Positions 54,832 through 63,636 of a DNA stretch of 64,000 nucleotides are shown piece after piece. The DNA lies in contig NZ_AP031573.1 in the NCBI RefSeq assembly GCF_041154745.1, forward strand, positions 2,108,001 through 2,172,000, written 5' to 3'. The DNA comes from Flavobacterium sp. CFS9. Lineage in GTDB: Bacteria > Bacteroidota > Bacteroidia > Flavobacteriales > Flavobacteriaceae. The notes below the pieces were generated by a model. It was not told the origin of the DNA. It did not search any database and saw nothing but the letters and a program-made list of their open reading frames with translations. The position numbers were made by a program, and so were the translations under genes. The first letter of the stretch is position 1. Every line of letters starts with the position of its first letter.

Positions 54832-56574
54832 ATGAGGCTGATCATCTCTTTTATACTCTTTTTTGTTGTAAATGTCGCTGTTTCTCAGGAGAAAAAGGAT
54901 TTTACGGAACAAGAGTACTTAATATTACAAGACAAAATTCGACTAACGGCAAATGCTAATGTTGACAGTTCGATCGTATATGCTAATCAGCTGGCAAGAT
55001 CTAATAACAATAAACATCTGGCTTTTGCAAATGCTGCATTGTCTTATTTGATTCAGTTAAAAGGAAATGCAGTAAAATCTAAGGAAAAATACCAGTTAGC
55101 ATTAAATTACTTAGATAAAATGCCGGATGATAAAGAGAAAACTCAACTTCGGTCTTATTTGTATAATTATGCCGGATTATCAGAATGGAAAAGAGAGAAT
55201 TACAGTGATGCGATCGAAAATTACCAACAAGGAATAAAACTTTCTATAAAGATTGGGGATATTATTCAAATTGTTAAGTTTAAGAGTAATATCGCGGCTA
55301 TAAATGTTGCTGTAGGTAATTATCGATTAGCGATTAAGGATTTGCGGAGTCTCAATGATTTTGTGGATAAAAACCAGAGCGTTTATACCAAGCAGCAATA
55401 TCTTAATAATAAGAGTAACATCAATCTTAGTTTAGCAGGATCATATGAAAGCTTTTATATGAAAGATCCTAAAAAGAAAGTTTTACTTGACTCTGCGGAG
55501 TATTTTTACCAAAAAACCATTAGCTATTCTCAAAATTTTCCGGACAATAAGATTGTAGCGAAATTAAGTTTAGGGAATATTTATGGTGAGCTGAAAGAAT
55601 ACAAAAATGCCGAAAAAACGTATTACGACATCATCTTTCTGGCCAATCAAAATAATATGCAGGAAATCTTATGTACTACTAATTATAATTTAGGAGACTT
55701 GTATTATAATACCAAGAAGTATGATAAGGCATTAGTGTTTTTTAAAAAATCAGATTCTATTGGTGAGTTAACTAAAACCAATCAGGTAGATCATCTGAAA
55801 TCAAATTATTATCAGGCAAAGATTTATAACATACTAAAAGAGCCGGAACTGGCTTATAAACATTCAAAAATTTACCTTGACAATTACGAAAAATCAGAAT
55901 CAAAATTAAATGATGAGATTCTGGAAGTAAATTATAAACTTGGTGTAGGAGATTTGACCAGTGAGATGGTTACCATTCAGGAGAAGTATAAGTACGACGT
56001 TTTTCTGAATAAAGCTTTGAAAGTCTTTTATGTTGTTTTATTTATAGGTATCGTATTCTTACTGATAAAAAACATACGGGATAAGAATAAAGCGCATAAA
56101 AAAATGAATGCTTTAATAGAAGAGTTTAAAGCTAATTTAGAGAAGAAAAACGAACCAGAACCAGAGATTGCTGTTCTGGAGTCTGAGGAGTTACAGCTTA
56201 AGAAAGAGAATGTCAATTTAAGTATTGATGAGGCAAAAGAGAATAAAATAGTAGAAAAATTGCTGGCTTTAGAGAGTAAACAGGAATTTTTGCATGCTGA
56301 TTTTACTTTGCCTTATGTGGCTAAGAAAATAAAAACAAATACAACTTATTTGTCTTATGTGGTAAACAAACGATTTGGTAAGTCTTTTGGTGAATATTCG
56401 AATGAGTTGAAAATTAATTATGTTATTAATGAAATGATTACGAACCATATGTATCGTAAATATTCAACTCAGGCAATAGCAGAAAGTGTAGGTTTCAAAA
56501 ATGCAGTGTCATTTGCTAAATCATTTCGCAAAAGAACTGGAGTGTCTCCAGCTCAGTTTGCGAATAATATCTAA
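54832..56574 (+). CDS. Transmembrane TPR regulator with C-terminal AraC DNA-binding domain
   Basis: A 580-residue protein with a signal-peptide-like start (IISFILFFVVNVAVSQ). TPR repeats follow over about 35-370 (LYNYAGLSEWKRENYSDAI, NLGDLYYNTKKYDKALVFF). A membrane helix lies at about 388-408 (VFYVVLFIGIVFLLI), then a coiled segment and an AraC-type HTH at about 475-580 (LPYVAKKIKTNTTYLSYVV, QAIAESVGFKNAVSFAKSF, RTGVSPAQFAN). The predicted layout is a periplasmic TPR sensor coupled to cytoplasmic DNA binding in one chain. It converges on the double-glycine peptide array, whose last stop is 20 bases beyond its own. TPR domains often bind peptides, so sensing of an exported peptide is a hypothesis. 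Confidence 0.85.
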   Translation: MRLIISFILFFVVNVAVSQEKKDFTEQEYLILQDKIRLTANANVDSSIVYANQLARSNNNKHLAFANAALSYLIQLKGNAVKSKEKYQLALNYLDKMPDDKEKTQLRSYLYNYAGLSEWKRENYSDAIENYQQGIKLSIKIGDIIQIVKFKSNIAAINVAVGNYRLAIKDLRSLNDFVDKNQSVYTKQQYLNNKSNINLSLAGSYESFYMKDPKKKVLLDSAEYFYQKTISYSQNFPDNKIVAKLSLGNIYGELKEYKNAEKTYYDIIFLANQNNMQEILCTTNYNLGDLYYNTKKYDKALVFFKKSDSIGELTKTNQVDHLKSNYYQAKIYNILKEPELAYKHSKIYLDNYEKSESKLNDEILEVNYKLGVGDLTSEMVTIQEKYKYDVFLNKALKVFYVVLFIGIVFLLIKNIRDKNKAHKKMNALIEEFKANLEKKNEPEPEIAVLESEELQLKKENVNLSIDEAKENKIVEKLLALESKQEFLHADFTLPYVAKKIKTNTTYLSYVVNKRFGKSFGEYSNELKINYVINEMITNHMYRKYSTQAIAESVGFKNAVSFAKSFRKRTGVSPAQFANNI

Positions 56575-56593: not shown

Positions 56594-56728
56594 TTAAGGA
56601 ATTTCGTCAGTACTTCCTTTCCCATTCCCTCTGGAAGGGTCACCGTCACCTCCGAAAATTGTTTGTTGCTCTTTTCTGGATAATTTTTCGTTCCCAAAAT
56701 CTTCGAATTTTATTTTTTTAGTTTTCAT
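56594..56728 (-). CDS. Double-glycine leader peptide A (44 aa)
   Basis: A 44-residue peptide, the last of a tandem array of five. The leader ends LSRKEQQTIFGG with the paired Gly at 26-27. The positions Leu(-12), Ser(-11), Glu(-8) and Ile(-4) match the leaders cut by C39 peptidases. The predicted 17-residue product is DGDPSRGNGKGSTDEIP. Its ATG overlaps the stop of peptide B as ATGA. No cysteine is present in the product. Confidence 0.78.
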   Translation of the reverse strand: MKTKKIKFEDFGNEKLSRKEQQTIFGGDGDPSRGNGKGSTDEIP

Positions 56729-56868
56729 TGTTGTAGGTTTATTAGTTGTGTAGATCCGTTGCCATTTCCTCTGTTACTATCGTTGTCACCTCCGTGAACC
56801 GATTTTTGTTCTTTTTTTGAAAGTGTATGGCTTGTAAAATCTTCGAAATTTAATTTTTTATTTTTCAT
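56725..56868 (-). CDS. Double-glycine leader peptide B (47 aa)
   Basis: A 47-residue peptide. The leader ends LSKKEQKSVHGG with the Gly pair at 26-27. The 20-residue product is DNDSNRGNGNGSTQLINLQQ, the most divergent core of the five: GNGNG replaces GNGKG and the tail is hydrophobic. It overlaps peptide A by four bases. Upstream, 20 bases separate it from peptide C. Confidence 0.78.
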   Translation of the reverse strand: MKNKKLNFEDFTSHTLSKKEQKSVHGGDNDSNRGNGNGSTQLINLQQ

Positions 56869-56888
56869 TTTTAGTAGATCTTTAGCGA

Positions 56889-57041
56889 TTAATTAGATCC
56901 TTTTCCATTTCCTCTACTTGGATCACCGGCAATTGTTTCGATGGGAGTACCAGGATCATCACCTCCGTGAACCGATTTTTGTTCTCTTTTTGAAAGTGTA
57001 TTGCTTTTGAAATTTTCGAAGTTTAATTTTTTATTTTTCAT
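56889..57041 (-). CDS. Double-glycine leader peptide C (50 aa)
   Basis: A 50-residue peptide. The leader ends LSKREQKSVHGG with the Gly pair at 26-27. The product is 23 residues, starting DDPGTPIETIAG and ending DPSRGNGKGSN. It differs from peptide D at only about nine positions overall, showing recent tandem duplication. The start is exactly 173 bases from the starts of B and D. Confidence 0.8.
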   Translation of the reverse strand: MKNKKLNFENFKSNTLSKREQKSVHGGDDPGTPIETIAGDPSRGNGKGSN

Positions 57042-57061
57042 GATTTGATTTTTTTAATTGA

Positions 57062-57214
57062 TTAATTAGATCCTTTTCCATTTCCTCTACTCGGATCCCC
57101 TGTAATTGTTTCTATAGGATTATTAGAATCATCACCTCCGCGAACCGTTTTTTGTTCTTTTTTTGAAAGTGTATTGCTTTTGAAATTTTCGAAGTTTAAT
57201 TTTTTATTTTTCAT
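57062..57214 (-). CDS. Double-glycine leader peptide D (50 aa)
   Basis: A 50-residue peptide. The leader ends LSKKEQKTVRGG with the Gly pair at 26-27. The product starts DDSNNPIETITG and ends DPSRGNGKGSN. It follows peptide E after 20 bases and precedes C after 20 bases. C, D and E share the ending GKGSN-stop. Confidence 0.8.
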   Translation of the reverse strand: MKNKKLNFENFKSNTLSKKEQKTVRGGDDSNNPIETITGDPSRGNGKGSN

Positions 57215-57234
57215 AATTTGATTTTTTTAAATGA

Positions 57235-57372
57235 TTAATTAGACCCTTTTCCATTCCCTCTATTTGGATCACCAGGGGTACAAGGTTCGTCTCCTCCCTG
57301 AACAATTTTTTGCTCTTTTTTGGATAGTTTTTCAGATAGAAAATCTTCCATTTTTTGTGTTCGATTTGACAT
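57235..57372 (-). CDS. Double-glycine leader peptide E (45 aa), first of the array
   Basis: A 45-residue peptide. The leader ends LSKKEQKIVQGG with the Gly pair at 26-27, and the predicted product is DEPCTPGDPNRGNGKGSN. It is the only array member with a Cys in the product. Two in-frame ATGs exist, at 57370-57372 and 57349-57351. The upper one is chosen because it puts the Gly pair at the same residue as in the other four. A TAnnTTTG box lies 30 bases upstream. Confidence 0.78.
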   Translation of the reverse strand: MSNRTQKMEDFLSEKLSKKEQKIVQGGDEPCTPGDPNRGNGKGSN

Positions 57373-57401: not shown

Positions 57402-57409
57402 CAAAACTA
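57402..57409 (-). promoter_or_regulatory. Probable -7 element of the peptide array
   Basis: On the minus strand TAGTTTTG matches TAnnTTTG, 30 bases before the first array ATG. No convincing -33 box was found. The remaining bases up to 57631, upstream of the divergent VKOR fusion, are AT-rich and hold no gene. Confidence 0.45.
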
Positions 57410-57631
57410 TATAAAAAGGAAAACGCTTAATCGAGAATAGGGTTTTTGAGGGTTCTGATAAAATTTTTAAGCATTAAAATATTGATAATCAGATAATTAT
57501 GATTTTATTCAGACTGATATAATTTATAAATTGTATGTAGTATAATTAATAAAATGTGTACTACTAGCGTTTTTTTCTCAACAAAAACAACAATCTTTGC
57601 AGTGTAATTATGATTTTAAAGACTCGAAAAG

Positions 57632-59194
57632 ATGTTAAAACTTGTCCAAAAATTTCTACAAATAAACAAGTACTCGGAGATTAAAAATGAGTTTAAAGAT
57701 TTGTTCCTTTCTCATCCAAATTATCCTAGTTTATTTGCGATAACAGATTCTCTGGATTTACTGTCTGTAGAGAATGCTGCGATAAGAGTTCCGAAAGAGC
57801 AAATAGTAGATTTGCCTTCAAATTTTTTGGCTTATTTCAAAGAAGAGTTAATATTAGTGGAAAAAGCAAAGAATTTTGTTCGAATCAATACAATGAAGAA
57901 AGGAAGTCAGAAAATGGCTTATGAAAAGTTTTTATTAGACTGGAATGGGGTTATAGTTGCAATTGAACCAAACAATGTTATAGCGAGAGAGAGAATAAAA
58001 GTTGAATTCAGCTGGTTAAAATATGGTTTGCCGCTCTTGTTGGTAGTTGGATTGTCATTTTTTTACAATACATACAATTTATTTAGCCTGGTTTTTTTAA
58101 CAACATCAATTTTAGGATTCATTGTAAGTATTTTCATTGTTCAGGAAAAACTGGGATTTAAGAATAGTATCATTTCAAAACTTTGCAATTTTAGTTCTAA
58201 TTCTTCCTGTAGCTCTGTAATCAATAATAAAGAAGGTAATGAAAGCAAATGGATTAGCTTTCCGGACTTACCACTAATGTTTTTTGGGGCCAGTTTGATT
58301 GCAATTCTGGTAAAACCACTGGAATCTTCGATTTTCATAGGTTTTTTAAGCTTATTAGCGATACCGGTTATTGTGTCTTCTATCTGGATTCAAAAATTTG
58401 AAATTCAAAGATGGTGTGTAATGTGTTTAATAGTGTCTGCTTTGATTTTTGTACAAAGTACTATATGGTTTGCGTCAGATTTGTTTACGTTGAGTTTTAG
58501 TTTTACCGAAATTTTTCCATTCTTGTTCTCATTGGCGCTTCTTGTTCCCATTTGGGCAGTTTTGAAAACAATTATAAAAAATATCTTAGGGACTGAAGGC
58601 TCACTTAAAGAGATGAAAAAGTTTAAAAGAAATTACTCTTTATTGAACTTCTTGTCTAAAAAAGTGCCTCATATAAATGGACTTGATGCTCTAAGAGGAT
58701 TACATTTTGGAAATAGAAATGCGGCCGTTAAGTTATCAGTAATCATCAGCCCTAGTTGTGGACATTGTCATAAAACATTTCAGGAGGCATTTGATTTAGT
58801 GTTGAGATTTCCGGAAAAGATACATTTAAATGTGTTGTTTAATGTAAATCCTGAGAATGCCGAAAATCCATATAAAGCAGTAGTTGAAAGACTTTTAACA
58901 ATAAACAGATCTACACCGGGAAAAACGGTTGAGGCTATTTCTGACTGGCATATCAAAAATATGAGTCTTAAAAAATGGTTGAAAAAATGGACTGTTGATT
59001 CTGTAAGCATGATGGTAACACAGGAAATCAACAAGCAATATGAATGGTGTTCTAAAAACGATTTTAATTACACACCAGTTAAGATTGTAAATGATAAAAT
59101 TTTTCCGGCAGAATATGAACTAGGAGAGTTAAAATACTTCTTAAACGATTATATCGAAGAGAAAGAGGAAGTTATTTTGGAAAAAACAGCATAA
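57632..59194 (+). CDS. VKOR-thioredoxin fusion with degenerate C39-like N-terminal domain
   Basis: A 520-residue disulfide-forming membrane protein. Residues 1-125 (HPNYPSLFAITDSLDLLSV, LVEKAKNFVRI, WNGVIVAIEPN) resemble a C39 peptidase fold without the catalytic Cys, a form known to bind leader peptides. Several helices follow, with a VKOR core: Cys185 and Cys193 (spaced as in human VKOR), then WCVMC with Cys262 and Cys265. A C-terminal thioredoxin-like domain carries SPSCGHCH (Cys376, Cys379). It would make disulfides in substrate peptides on the periplasmic side. The six-cysteine double-glycine peptide encoded 85 bases downstream is the obvious substrate. Confidence 0.85.
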   Translation: MLKLVQKFLQINKYSEIKNEFKDLFLSHPNYPSLFAITDSLDLLSVENAAIRVPKEQIVDLPSNFLAYFKEELILVEKAKNFVRINTMKKGSQKMAYEKFLLDWNGVIVAIEPNNVIARERIKVEFSWLKYGLPLLLVVGLSFFYNTYNLFSLVFLTTSILGFIVSIFIVQEKLGFKNSIISKLCNFSSNSSCSSVINNKEGNESKWISFPDLPLMFFGASLIAILVKPLESSIFIGFLSLLAIPVIVSSIWIQKFEIQRWCVMCLIVSALIFVQSTIWFASDLFTLSFSFTEIFPFLFSLALLVPIWAVLKTIIKNILGTEGSLKEMKKFKRNYSLLNFLSKKVPHINGLDALRGLHFGNRNAAVKLSVIISPSCGHCHKTFQEAFDLVLRFPEKIHLNVLFNVNPENAENPYKAVVERLLTINRSTPGKTVEAISDWHIKNMSLKKWLKKWTVDSVSMMVTQEINKQYEWCSKNDFNYTPVKIVNDKIFPAEYELGELKYFLNDYIEEKEEVILEKTA

Positions 59195-59279: not shown

Positions 59280-59477
59280 ATGTTAAAAATCATTTTAAAC
59301 TTAGAAGGTGCTCAAGAGCTAAGTGCATTCGAGCAAAAAGGCATGATAGGTGGGCAGCCAATTAATCCGCCTAAAAGATGTTGTGTTTGTCCGGGCAAAG
59401 GTTCGTCTACTCTTGTGACATGTGATTCGATTTGTTCGAACGGTACAATACCGGCAGTGCTTGAGGATTGTTTATAG
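59280..59477 (+). CDS. Six-cysteine double-glycine peptide precursor
   Basis: A 65-residue peptide. The leader NLEGAQELSAFEQKGMIGG ends with the Gly pair at 24-25. It has Leu, Ser and Glu at positions matching C39-cleaved leaders. The 40-residue product contains six Cys (34, 35, 37, 48, 52, 64), enough for three disulfides, with a CCVCPGKG start. It follows the VKOR-thioredoxin fusion and precedes the C39 ABC exporter. A bacteriocin-like or signalling role is possible; the fold is not recognised. Confidence 0.82.
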   Translation: MLKIILNLEGAQELSAFEQKGMIGGQPINPPKRCCVCPGKGSSTLVTCDSICSNGTIPAVLEDCL

Positions 59478-60147: not shown

Positions 60148-62340
60148 TTGAAAAAATTTACCAATTATAAGCAGGCCGATTATAAAGATTGTGGGCCGAC
60201 GTGTTTAAAAATAATAGCGAAACATTACGGCAAAACAATCAACATTCAGGAGTTGAGAGACATCAGTGAAACAACTCGTGAAGGAAGTAATTTGCTTTTT
60301 TTGAGTGATGCGGCCGAGAAAATTGGTTTTAGAACTTTAGGGGTGAAATTAAGTCTCGAACGATTAGAAGAGGCTCCGCTTCCTTGTGTTCTGCATTGGA
60401 ACAAAAATCATTATGTAGTACTTTACAAAATTAAAAAAAATACCTACTATATTTCGGATCCTGCCTTTGGTCTGATCGAATACAACAAAGAGGATTTTAT
60501 TAAATTCTGGATCGGAAACAATGCAGACGAATCTACTCAGGAAGGAATAGCATTATTGATTGAAGCGACTCCTAAATTCTTTCAATCTGATTTTGATAAA
60601 GAAGACAATCATGGACTCGGATTTGGGTTGTTGGCACAATATGTACTTCGGTACAGGTCGTTTCTATTACAGTTAAGTATAGGGTTACTGGCCAGTAGTT
60701 TATTACAGCTTATTTTTCCGTTTTTAACCCAAAGTATCGTAGATGTCGGGATTCAAAATCAGAACATTCATTTTATTTATCTGATTCTTTTTGCTCAATT
60801 GTTTCTTTTTGCGGGAAGGACAGGTTTGGAACTTATCAGAAGCTGGATTTTATTGCATCTTTCTACCCGAATAAACATTTCTCTTATTTCGGATTTCTTT
60901 ATTAAACTGATGAACTTGCCCATTTCGTTTTTCGATGTGCGAATGACTGGTGATATTATGCAGCGTATTAATGACCATCGCAGAATTGAACGAATTTTGA
61001 CAACATCATCTCTGAATGTCTTATTTTCTGTGATCAATATGTTTGTGATGGGAGGTGTTCTGGCTTATTTTAACCTGAAGATCTTTCTGGTGTTTTTTGC
61101 CGGTAGTCTGCTTTATTTTGGATGGATTACTTTGTTCTTAAAAAGAAGAGAGGTGCTCGATTACAAGCGTTTTGCAGAGGTTTCCAGTGAGCAAAACAAA
61201 GTAATGGAGCTTATCAACGGAATGCAGGAAATAAAGCTGCACAACGCCGAAAAACAAAAACGCTGGGGGTGGGAATACATACAGGCCAGACTTTTTAGAG
61301 TTTCGATAAAAGGCTTGGTTTTAGAACAAACACAAACTATCGGCTCTTCTGTAATCAATGAATTAAAAAATATCTTTATTATATTCCTATCGGCAAAACT
61401 GGTAATCGACGGCTCCATTACACTGGGGATGATGCTGGCGATTAGTTCGATAGTGGGGAGTTTAAACGGGCCAATTACGCAGCTTATAGAATTCGTAAGG
61501 GAACTTCAGGATGCAAAGATATCATTGGCCAGATTATCAGAAATTCATGAAAAAGAAGACGAAACACAGCAAGAAGTCTATCAGACGAGTGATGTCCCGT
61601 TTGATTCGGATATCGATATTAATAATCTTTCCTATAGGTATTTAGGTTCTGATATTCCTGTTTTGGAAGATCTGACATTGAAAATACCGGCCAATAAAGT
61701 TACGGCGATAGTAGGAGTCAGTGGAAGCGGTAAAACAACTTTAATGAAGCTCTTATTGAAATTCTATGAACCTGAAAAAGGGGAGATCAACATCGGAAAT
61801 ACACAATTGAAAAATATTTCGCAAAAAGCATGGAGATCTAATATCGGAGCTGTTATGCAGGAAGGGTTTATTTTTAGTGATACTATTGCTAACAATATTG
61901 CGATAGGAGTTGATAAAGTGGATAAAGAACGTTTGGTATATGCTGCTGATGTAGCCAATATAAAAGAATACATTTCAGGTTTACCATTAGGGTACAATAC
62001 TAAAATTGGTGCCGAAGGACTTGGGATGAGTACCGGACAAAAACAACGTTTGTTAATTGCAAGAGCTGTATATAAAAATCCGGAAGTTTTGTTTTTTGAT
62101 GAAGCTACATCGGCATTGGATGCGAATAATGAAAAAGAAATCATGCAAAAACTGGATATTTTCTTTAAAGACAAGACAGTTGTGGTTATTGCCCATCGCT
62201 TGAGTACCGTGATGAATGCCGATCAAATTGTGGTTTTAGACAAAGGGAAAATCATCGAAATTGGCAGTCATTCTGTTTTAGTAGAGCAAAAAGGGAATTA
62301 TTTTGAACTGGTTAAGAATCAATTACAATTAGGAAATTAA
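60148..62340 (+). CDS. C39 peptidase-containing ABC exporter (PCAT)
   Basis: A 730-residue bacteriocin-type exporter that cleaves double-glycine leaders and exports the product. The C39 domain at 1-140 has catalytic Cys15 (YKDCGPTC), His in WNKNHYVVLY and Asp in ISDPAFGL. A six-helix transmembrane domain at about 160-450 and an ATPase after about 490 follow: Walker A GVSGSGKTTL, signature STGQKQR, Walker B VLFFDEATSALDA. No ATG precedes the C39 domain, so translation probably starts at the TTG at 60148. The HlyD adaptor follows after three bases. Its substrates should be the six double-glycine peptides nearby. Confidence 0.93.
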   Translation: MKKFTNYKQADYKDCGPTCLKIIAKHYGKTINIQELRDISETTREGSNLLFLSDAAEKIGFRTLGVKLSLERLEEAPLPCVLHWNKNHYVVLYKIKKNTYYISDPAFGLIEYNKEDFIKFWIGNNADESTQEGIALLIEATPKFFQSDFDKEDNHGLGFGLLAQYVLRYRSFLLQLSIGLLASSLLQLIFPFLTQSIVDVGIQNQNIHFIYLILFAQLFLFAGRTGLELIRSWILLHLSTRINISLISDFFIKLMNLPISFFDVRMTGDIMQRINDHRRIERILTTSSLNVLFSVINMFVMGGVLAYFNLKIFLVFFAGSLLYFGWITLFLKRREVLDYKRFAEVSSEQNKVMELINGMQEIKLHNAEKQKRWGWEYIQARLFRVSIKGLVLEQTQTIGSSVINELKNIFIIFLSAKLVIDGSITLGMMLAISSIVGSLNGPITQLIEFVRELQDAKISLARLSEIHEKEDETQQEVYQTSDVPFDSDIDINNLSYRYLGSDIPVLEDLTLKIPANKVTAIVGVSGSGKTTLMKLLLKFYEPEKGEINIGNTQLKNISQKAWRSNIGAVMQEGFIFSDTIANNIAIGVDKVDKERLVYAADVANIKEYISGLPLGYNTKIGAEGLGMSTGQKQRLLIARAVYKNPEVLFFDEATSALDANNEKEIMQKLDIFFKDKTVVVIAHRLSTVMNADQIVVLDKGKIIEIGSHSVLVEQKGNYFELVKNQLQLGN

Positions 62341-62343
62341 AAC

Positions 62344-63636
62344 ATGGAAGAAGATACTACATTTGAACTAAGAAGTGAAGAAGTTCAGGATATTCTAACC
62401 AAAGTACCGCATTGGATGATTCGTTGGGGAACCGTTTTGATATTTGTCATTATTGTGATGCTTTTTTTCGTGTCCTGGTTTATCAAATATCCGGATGTTG
62501 TTACTACTCAAATTGTAATTACAACCAATATTCCTCCAGAGAAGATCGTTTCGAAATCATCGGGTCGTATTGAGGCAATTTTAGTAAAAGATAAATCGAT
62601 CGTTTCGAAAAACAGCACACTTGCCGTCATTGAAAACACCGCTAATTTTAAAGATGTTTTTTTGTTGAAAAAGATCGTTGACGAATATAATATCAATGAC
62701 CCTAAGAAAGCTTTTCCGTTCGATTTGTTGAAAAACACTCAGTTAGGAGAGATTGAAAGTGCTTTTGCTGTTTTTCAAAAGGATTATTTGGCCGAGCAGT
62801 TGAATAAAAACTTGCAGCCTTTTGAGGTAGAAAATCGGGCACAGGTTTCTGAAAAAGTTCAGATCAAAGACAGATTGGAAATTTTGCAGCAGCAAAAAGT
62901 GATTAATGAAAGTGAATTGCAGCTTCAGAAAAATGAAATGGCAAGATTTGAAACCTTATTCAATAAAGGAATCATTTCTGCACAGGAAATGGAAGCTAAA
63001 AAACTGGGATATCTTCAGGCGCAAAAAAATTACAGGAGCCTTTTGTCTTCCATTTCTCAGTTAAAGTCGGCTTTGATTACGAATACTAAATTAAGTCAAA
63101 ACTCACAAATCAGCGGGACAAAAGAAGAAGTTACTTTAGGAAGAAATATGGCGCAGTCTTTTTATCAGCTTAAAAAAGTAATAAAAGACTGGGAGCTGGC
63201 ATATGCTTTAAGATCTTCGGTAAGTGGAGTGGTTACTTTTTTACAGGTTTGGACGGAGAATCAAACTATTAATATTGGAGATAACGTCTTCTCGATTATT
63301 CCGGATACCAAAAATGGTTTTGTAGGTAAGGTAAAAGCACCGGCATTAAATTCGGGAAAAATTAAAGTAGGTCAGATGGTGAACATCAGATTGGCGAATT
63401 TTCCCGACAGAGAATTCGGAGTGCTAAGAGGAAAGATCCGAAATATCTCTTTAGTTCCGGATAAAGATGGAAATTTATTGCTGGATGTAGCGCTTCCAAA
63501 CGGACTGGAAACGTCCTATAAAAAGCAAATTGTTTTTCAACAGGAAATGAAAGGAAGTGCTGAGATCGTAACCGAAGATTTGCGTTTAATCGAGAGAATC
63601 TTATATCAGTTTAAAAGTCTTTTTGAGCAAGTTTAG
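62344..63636 (+). CDS. HlyD-family secretion adaptor
   Basis: A 430-residue membrane fusion protein with a single N-terminal anchor (VLIFVIIVMLFFVSWFI). A long coiled hairpin lies at about 160-290 (LQKNEMARFETLFNKGIIS, AQEMEAKKLGYLQAQKNY). A lipoyl-like and barrel region follows (SSVSGVVTFLQVWTENQTI, NSGKIKVGQMVNIRLANFP). It starts three bases after the ABC gene and links the exporter to an outer-membrane channel encoded elsewhere. Its last bases overlap those of the convergent methyltransferase gene. Confidence 0.9.
   Translation: MEEDTTFELRSEEVQDILTKVPHWMIRWGTVLIFVIIVMLFFVSWFIKYPDVVTTQIVITTNIPPEKIVSKSSGRIEAILVKDKSIVSKNSTLAVIENTANFKDVFLLKKIVDEYNINDPKKAFPFDLLKNTQLGEIESAFAVFQKDYLAEQLNKNLQPFEVENRAQVSEKVQIKDRLEILQQQKVINESELQLQKNEMARFETLFNKGIISAQEMEAKKLGYLQAQKNYRSLLSSISQLKSALITNTKLSQNSQISGTKEEVTLGRNMAQSFYQLKKVIKDWELAYALRSSVSGVVTFLQVWTENQTINIGDNVFSIIPDTKNGFVGKVKAPALNSGKIKVGQMVNIRLANFPDREFGVLRGKIRNISLVPDKDGNLLLDVALPNGLETSYKKQIVFQQEMKGSAEIVTEDLRLIERILYQFKSLFEQV

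What the first reader, a model, noticed from the sequence alone, without database searches (positions are those of the whole stretch)
56594..57372. Five tandem tiny genes encode double-glycine peptides with a conserved RGNGxGS core
Seen directly: five consecutive minus-strand frames of 44-50 codons, each with a leader matching L-S-x-x-E-Q-x-x-[IV]-x-G-G and the Gly pair always at residues 26-27. The predicted products are 17-23 residues and share GDP[SN]RGNGKGS with variable ends. Established: C39 peptidases cut after such GG pairs. Inference: this is a multi-product secreted peptide family, possibly signals or antimicrobials, of a type not known to me. The conserved core suggests a common receptor or modification.
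Basis: partly seen in the sequence, partly recalled or inferred. Interest (0 to 1): 0.88.

Follow-up and report, generated by a model that had tools for sequence, protein, structure and literature searches.

The report
Flavobacterium peptide signal array with receptor
A Flavobacterium carries five small genes for short, probably secreted peptides beside a sensor-regulator and a peptide exporter, an arrangement that looks like an undescribed peptide signalling system and can now be tested in the laboratory.

Summary
In detail: five adjacent minus-strand genes (57372 down to 56594) encode double-glycine precursors whose mature parts share RGNGxGS; 0 of 3000 shuffles give even one such leader ORF. 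The array is one position of a conserved Flavobacterium locus: TPR-TM-AraC regulator (+) / peptide array (-) / VKOR-thioredoxin (+) / Cys-rich GG peptides (+) / C39 ABC exporter (+) / HlyD (+). In named genomes 79 of 80 regulator orthologues have such peptide genes downstream on the opposite strand; the 80th lies at a contig end. Cores are more uniform than leaders within genomes and less uniform between them. The TPR domain has about nine times the mean distance of the HTH. The divergent promoter region holds a tandem repeat found once per genome in 70 of 71 genomes with a close regulator orthologue and in 0 of 327 others. Best reading (0.6): exported peptide pheromones sensed by the TPR-AraC protein, which acts on that repeat to switch on the array and the export/bacteriocin-like operon. 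Export, receptor binding and regulation are inferred. The label 'rSAM-modified RiPP' (TIGR04149) fits some leaders, but the TIGR04148 maturase was not found. Ten literature searches found no account.

The parts
57235..57372 (-). array peptide 1, 45 aa, mature DEPCTPGDPNRGNGKGSN
   Evidence: ORF and GG leader; no TIGR04149 match
57062..57214 (-). array peptide 2, 50 aa, mature DDSNNPIETITGDPSRGNGKGSN
   Evidence: TIGR04149 28.9 bits, cut-off 25
56889..57041 (-). array peptide 3, 50 aa, mature DDPGTPIETIAGDPSRGNGKGSN
   Evidence: TIGR04149 28.2 bits
56725..56868 (-). array peptide 4, 47 aa, mature DNDSNRGNGNGSTQLINLQQ
   Evidence: TIGR04149 25 bits, equal to the cut-off
56594..56728 (-). array peptide 5, 44 aa, mature DGDPSRGNGKGSTDEIP; overlaps peptide 4 by 4 bp
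   Evidence: TIGR04149 21.8 bits, below cut-off
57518..57559 (+). candidate operator: tandem repeat TATAATTTATAAATTGTATGT-nn-TATAATTnATAAAATGTnT (half-sites 23 bp apart) between array and VKOR gene
   Evidence: first half ATAATTTATAAATTGTATG identical in 58 of 58 loci, the whole repeat without a mismatch in 44 of 58; with up to 3 mismatches once per genome in 70 of 398 genomes; window score 65.8, next -35.1 on its own other strand, elsewhere -42.5 at best
57402..57409 (-). Bacteroidota-type -7 element TAGTTTTG, 37 nt upstream of the array start
   Evidence: TAnnTTTG 15-120 nt upstream of the array in 34 of 58 loci, 33 of them at 36-37 nt, against 2 of 58 on the other strand; consensus recalled
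54832..56574 (+). N-terminal hydrophobic segment / TPR superhelix / one TM / AraC-type HTH regulator: candidate pheromone receptor
   Evidence: Pfam TPR, HTH_18; AF2 model pLDDT 82.8, pTM 0.58; TM about 394-413
57632..59194 (+). VKOR-thioredoxin fusion with N-terminal C39-like domain (below Pfam cut-off) without Cys: presumed disulfide formation for the Cys-rich peptides
   Evidence: Pfam VKOR 44.4 bits; six Cys invariant in 36 of 36; no Cys in the N-terminal part
59280..59477 (+). Cys-rich GG peptide, 65 aa, bacteriocin-like candidate effector
   Evidence: ORF; class of 75 such ORFs in 28 loci, all with Cys
60148..62340 (+). C39 peptidase ABC exporter (TTG start)
   Evidence: Pfam C39 120 bits, ABC; Q9, C15, H88, D104 invariant in 30 of 30
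62344..63636 (+). HlyD-type membrane fusion protein
   Evidence: Pfam HlyD_3; TIGR01843 85.6 bits, below its cut-off

Best explanation
The array encodes a multi-copy peptide pheromone. Each precursor is exported through the C39 ABC/HlyD pair and cut after the double glycine, releasing a short hydrophilic peptide with the core DPSRGNGKGS. The extracytoplasmic TPR superhelix of the neighbouring TPR-TM-AraC protein binds the species' own core, and the protein then acts through its nearly invariant HTH on the single tandem-repeat operator between array and VKOR gene. That switches on the array (positive feedback) and, divergently, the oxidation/export operon with its Cys-rich bacteriocin-like peptides. 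Shown here: gene order, conservation, selection pattern, operator and its link with the regulator. Inferred: export, cleavage site, topology, receptor binding, DNA binding and direction of regulation.
For: (1) Position: 79 of 80 named loci have at least one GG peptide gene downstream of the regulator on the opposite strand (within 4.9 kb); in the other the contig ends after 105 bp. The two samples share genomes and are not independent. (2) Operator: first half-site identical in 58 of 58 loci; in 398 genomes found once each in 70 of 71 with a close regulator orthologue and in 0 of 327 others (lists compared by hand). (3) Regulator: mean distance over 58 loci 0.46 for the sensor, 0.05 for the HTH, 0.25 for VKOR; TPR fold resembles LGN-peptide complexes (top ranks) and Rap-Phr pheromone receptors (ranks 32-45). 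(4) Peptides: within genomes the core varies less than the leader (0.201 against 0.279; 38 of 51 genomes, p 0.008), between genomes more, in all five distance bins; dN/dS 0.21 core, 0.35 leader over 296 pairs. (5) Peptide-sensor distance correlation r 0.47; 0.41 with VKOR held fixed; 0.31 with leader and VKOR held fixed. (6) Two peptide classes: 196 array peptides, median 20 aa, GRAVY -1.39, 5 with Cys; 75 plus-strand ORFs with a loose GG pattern in 28 loci, median 42 aa, 75 with Cys.
Against: The distance correlation is not specific to the mature part: the leader correlates with the sensor as well (r 0.51; 0.39 with core and VKOR held fixed), so plain co-inheritance of regulator and array is not excluded. 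In 13 of 51 genomes the core varies more than the leader. Presumed concave TPR positions are only slightly more variable than other helix positions (1.18 against 0.95 and 0.91 bits). In distant orthologues the repeat is recognisable only in some loci. No direct evidence that the TPR domain binds these peptides, or that this regulator binds the operator. A signal must cross the outer membrane or act in the periplasm; neither is shown.
Confidence: 0.6

Rival explanations
1. The array peptides are themselves antimicrobial (a multi-component unmodified bacteriocin), and the TPR-AraC protein is only their regulator, answering another cue.
For: GG leaders and a C39 exporter are typical of bacteriocins (recalled); NCBIfam's leader_Chryseo model, named bacteriocin-like, matches all five weakly, below its cut-off.
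Against: Mature parts are short, hydrophilic and acidic (median GRAVY -1.39, charge -2), unlike membrane-active bacteriocins; the locus has a separate Cys-rich, bacteriocin-like set; within-genome uniformity of the core in 38 of 51 genomes fits one receptor better than a weapon cocktail.
Confidence: 0.17
2. The peptides are rSAM-modified RiPP precursors of the TIGR04149 kind.
For: Two of five pass the TIGR04149 cut-off and one equals it; four of the five TIGR04149 matches in the genome at E 0.01, the best three among them, are array members.
Against: TIGR04148 maturase: 0 matches in the genome at E 0.001, while the model gives weak matches in 11 of 14 control genomes; no modification enzyme among the ten window proteins scanned; 4 of 4 array peptides from other species are below the cut-off or unmatched. 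TIGR04150 was not searched.
Confidence: 0.06
3. The array and the regulator are simply co-inherited: peptides are a secreted product with another role (for example matrix, metal or surface function), and repeat and synteny reflect ordinary local regulation without peptide sensing.
For: Leader and core correlate about equally with the sensor; AraC regulators next to their targets are common (recalled).
Against: Does not explain why the predicted extracytoplasmic domain and the mature core diversify while HTH and repeat stay nearly fixed.
Confidence: 0.17

Closest known systems
GG-leader pheromone systems of class II bacteriocin loci (plantaricin plnA, Blp, Sip; recalled)
   Same: short GG pheromone and bacteriocin precursors share one C39 exporter; regulator gene in the locus; autoinduction expected
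   Different: here the presumed receptor is a single membrane TPR-AraC protein, not a histidine kinase with response regulator; the peptide gene is repeated 1-8 times; Gram-negative Bacteroidota
RRNPP receptors (Rap, PlcR, ComR, Rgg; recalled) with Phr-type peptides
   Same: TPR superhelix as presumed peptide receptor; Rap structures with Phr-type peptides are among the structure matches
   Different: RRNPP receptors are cytosolic and need peptide import; this TPR is predicted extracytoplasmic, joined to an AraC HTH through one TM
TIGR04149 (GG_sam_targ_CFB) precursors (PMC4573289, passages seen: Bacteroides clusters with rSAM proteins)
   Same: leader and GG
   Different: no TIGR04148 maturase found; different mature part
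RiPP clusters of Bacteroidales with TPR genes (PMC10352776, passages seen)
   Same: GG precursors near TPR genes, pheromone role considered there
   Different: modification enzymes are described there; no conserved array, operator or receptor pairing in the passages seen

Membership tests
TIGR04149 rSAM-modified RiPP | profile score at or above 25 bits | tested here: inconclusive
   none, 28.9, 28.2, 25 and 21.8 for peptides 1-5; 4 of 4 array peptides from other loci below cut-off or without match
TIGR04149 rSAM-modified RiPP | partner rSAM maturase | tested here: not met
   TIGR04148 0 matches in G000; TIGR04150 was not searched; no rSAM Pfam hit among the ten window proteins scanned
C39-exported double-glycine peptide | leader with GG at the cut site | tested here: met
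C39-exported double-glycine peptide | C39 ABC exporter with intact catalytic residues in the locus | tested here: met
   Q9, C15, H88, D104 invariant in 30 of 30; one row, L068, a 27% match, was dropped; with it no residue of these kinds was invariant
C39-exported double-glycine peptide | cleavage and export of these peptides | not testable with these tools
   needs mass spectrometry
Peptide-pheromone (quorum-sensing) system | signal gene linked to cognate receptor-regulator gene | tested here: met
   genomic linkage only; binding not tested
Peptide-pheromone (quorum-sensing) system | signal and receptor specificity co-vary | tested here: inconclusive
   r 0.47, but leader equally correlated
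Peptide-pheromone (quorum-sensing) system | signal-dependent activation of its own genes | not testable with these tools
   shared repeat in the divergent promoter region is consistent
RRNPP | cytosolic TPR receptor with HTH or phosphatase, imported peptide | tested here: not met
   N-terminal hydrophobic segment and TM 394-413 place the TPR outside the cytosol (topology predicted from hydropathy)

The most novel reading that the evidence does not exclude
A dedicated, species-specific peptide quorum-sensing family in Bacteroidota: exported multi-copy GG pheromones read by a one-component membrane receptor (extracytoplasmic TPR, TM, AraC) that works on one operator per genome, with TPR-TM copies lacking the HTH in some species acting as decoys or immunity.
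Probability: 0.5. Interest if true: 0.9.

Novelty: new variant of a known kind. Interest (0 to 1): 0.78.

Why it matters
[quoted passage not shown] This locus gives named, testable parts in culturable species, among them Flavobacterium johnsoniae CI04 and F. hibernum: candidate ligand, receptor, operator and target operon. If true it adds a receptor architecture to peptide signalling and links it to a bacteriocin-like output in a widespread genus.

Tried and rejected
Mantel tests as proof of ligand-receptor co-evolution: rejected as proof, because the leader control correlates equally. TPR groove variability: weak difference only, repeat registration set by eye. Sigma-70 promoter scan at chance level and no terminator. 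Pfam: one weak match below cut-off among the five peptides; PHROGs: none for the three array peptides and the one Cys-rich peptide given. Other loci in the same genome: one lone Cys-rich GG peptide at L249:9804-10004; no TPR-AraC paralogue close to this one, the other 7 matches being partial and 24-30% identical. Generality outside the genus: 6 other genomes of 299 searched matched, none over more than positions 283-585 of the model, with four candidates scored per genome; of 7 regions fetched from these, 2 (both of genome G708) have GG peptides beside TPR-AraC genes and 5 do not, chance-like ORFs in L243 apart. Ten literature searches gave no description of this locus; the library holds open-licence papers only. 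Papers seen as passages found by term, none in full: PMC4573289, PMC5524665, PMC8939145, PMC10352776, PMC7662799, PMC6801697.

Rows dropped: the 58-locus statistics use the window plus 57 of 102 fetched loci, those with one full-length regulator of at least 60% identity directly followed by VKOR; tandem and distant loci were left out. One precursor with an N run was dropped. Three of 58 loci lack the full 61-base segment in the column count. L177 and L212 each listed one unrelated extra ORF. The count of 80 plus-strand peptides held repeats and was redone as 75.

Full report
Observation. The longer core GDP[SN]RGNGKGS is in four of five. Neighbouring genes are 20 bp apart or overlap by 4 bp, so one transcript is likely (inference). 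The pattern is not chance (0 of 3000 mononucleotide shuffles against 5 real).

Locus. Convergent to the array, 19 bp from its end, lies a 580-aa regulator: N-terminal hydrophobic segment, TPR repeats, one TM segment, AraC-type HTH. Divergent from the array are a VKOR-thioredoxin protein with a C39-like domain that has no Cys, a Cys-rich GG peptide, a C39 ABC exporter and an HlyD protein. In 30 exporter sequences Q9, C15, H88 and D104 are invariant, one unrelated-looking row (L068) dropped; in 36 VKOR proteins the six VKOR/thioredoxin Cys are invariant. That these four are the catalytic residues is recalled.

Taxonomy. A scan of named genomes with the regulator alignment kept the best 80 of 200 encoding stretches: 77 titles read Flavobacterium, two Flavobacteriaceae bacterium and one [Flexibacter] sp. 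ATCC 35103; the closest is F. tructae, with 100% identity over the regulator. The window's own organism is therefore F. tructae or a near relative (inference). Within the family sample, 6 genomes besides the window's own, of 299, matched at E 1e-40, none over more than positions 283-585 of the model.

Linkage. Of 32 large neighbourhoods fetched, 31 have the regulator with the same acyl-CoA dehydrogenase gene within 4 kb; L068 has neither. Downstream of the regulator on the opposite strand there is a GG peptide gene in 79 of 80 named loci; L234 has only 105 bp left on its contig. In the unnamed sample, 91 of 103 terminal regulator copies (101 loci) pass a fixed leader pattern. By eye, 8 more (L066, L124-L127, L137, L138, L146) carry a leader-like convergent peptide, with GG turned to GM in L137 and L138 and to CG in L124; L119 (contig end), L123, L130 and L140 do not. 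Copy number in the 58 loci used for statistics is 1 to 8.

Selection. Within genomes the core is kept while synonymous sites change: dN/dS 0.21 for an eight-codon core, 0.35 for the leader, 296 pairs. In the window the serine of the core is coded by both AGT and TCC, so identity of the core is not recent copying. Within 51 genomes the core differs less than the leader (0.201 and 0.279; 38 genomes to 13; Wilcoxon p 0.008); between genomes it differs more, in all five distance bins. All five copies of F. collinsii read DTIRGNGKGS where four of five in F. tructae read DPSRGNGKGS; Flavobacterium sp. SLB02 has one precursor with the core twice. This is the pattern expected of one ligand specificity per species (inference).

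Regulator and operator. Over 58 loci the TPR part has mean distance 0.46, the HTH 0.05 and the VKOR protein 0.25. If the HTH is fixed, its target should be fixed. The array-VKOR intergenic region has two half-sites, TATAATTwATAAAwTGTnT, 23 bp apart. The first, ATAATTTATAAATTGTATG, is identical in 58 of 58 loci; the whole repeat is without mismatch in 44 of 58. With up to 3 mismatches it occurs once in each of 70 of 398 genomes, with none for the reversed control pattern in the table. Comparing this list by hand, it is present in 70 of the 71 genomes whose best regulator match is at least 63% identical, and in none of the other 327, 26 of which have a distant orthologue (52% or less). The exception, G508, is 81% complete and its regulator lies about 700 bp from the end of a 7-kb contig. 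Several distant loci show a related tandem repeat (L123, L124, L131, L136, L138), others do not. Tandem repeats about two helix turns apart are usual targets of AraC-type proteins (recalled).

Two peptide classes. The 196 array products are short, acidic and hydrophilic; 5 contain Cys and 44 an aromatic residue. Between VKOR and exporter in 28 of the loci there are 75 plus-strand ORFs with a loose GG pattern: 75 contain Cys, 70 an aromatic residue, median 42 aa; with a strict leader 58, all with Cys. Two of the 28 loci have none. The VKOR-thioredoxin protein therefore most likely serves the second class (inference).

Mechanism. The best-supported reading is a pheromone circuit: array peptides exported and cut by the C39 exporter, bound by the TPR domain outside the cytosol, regulator acting on the single operator to raise both divergent units. 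Structure matches of the model include LGN-peptide complexes at the top and Rap receptors, some with Phr-type peptides, at ranks 32-45, which shows that such superhelices can hold peptides, not that this one does.

Limits. Peptide and sensor distances correlate (r 0.47; 0.41 with VKOR held fixed), but the leader correlates as well (r 0.51). With leader and VKOR held fixed the core still gives 0.31, and with core and VKOR held fixed the leader gives 0.39, so this is not proof of ligand-receptor co-evolution. Groove variability is inconclusive. Nothing here shows expression, export, binding or response.

Known families. TIGR04149 fits part of the leaders, but the TIGR04148 maturase was not found in the genome, so the array is not filed there. 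It works most like the pheromone arm of class II bacteriocin loci (recalled), with a different receptor type. No description was found in the ten searches listed under Tried and rejected.

Noticed in passing
L059 9961-12749, L099, L101, L104 (genomes G154, G460, G429, G511): Extra TPR-TM copies that lack the HTH (regulator positions 1 to about 440 only) between the full regulator and the peptide gene; possible decoy or immunity receptors.
   Followed up: no
L162 and L080 (Flavobacterium sp. SLB02 and its unnamed counterpart): One precursor carries the core IDPSKGDGKGNT twice.
   Followed up: no
window 57632-59194: N-terminal C39-like domain without any Cys fused to VKOR and thioredoxin; possibly binds leaders without cutting.
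   Followed up: partly
L237, L238 (genome G708, other genus): TPR-AraC genes similar only in the C-terminal part also have GG peptide genes nearby, on both strands in L237.
   Followed up: partly
L066 11648-16255: A run of about 15 plus-strand GG-like peptide ORFs between VKOR and the C39 exporter.
   Followed up: no
L249 9804-10004 (own genome): A lone Cys-containing GG peptide of 66 aa far from the locus.
   Followed up: no
L137, L138: Convergent peptides where the GG has become GM but the shared stretch DTVSSEDNGDGKP is kept.
   Followed up: no
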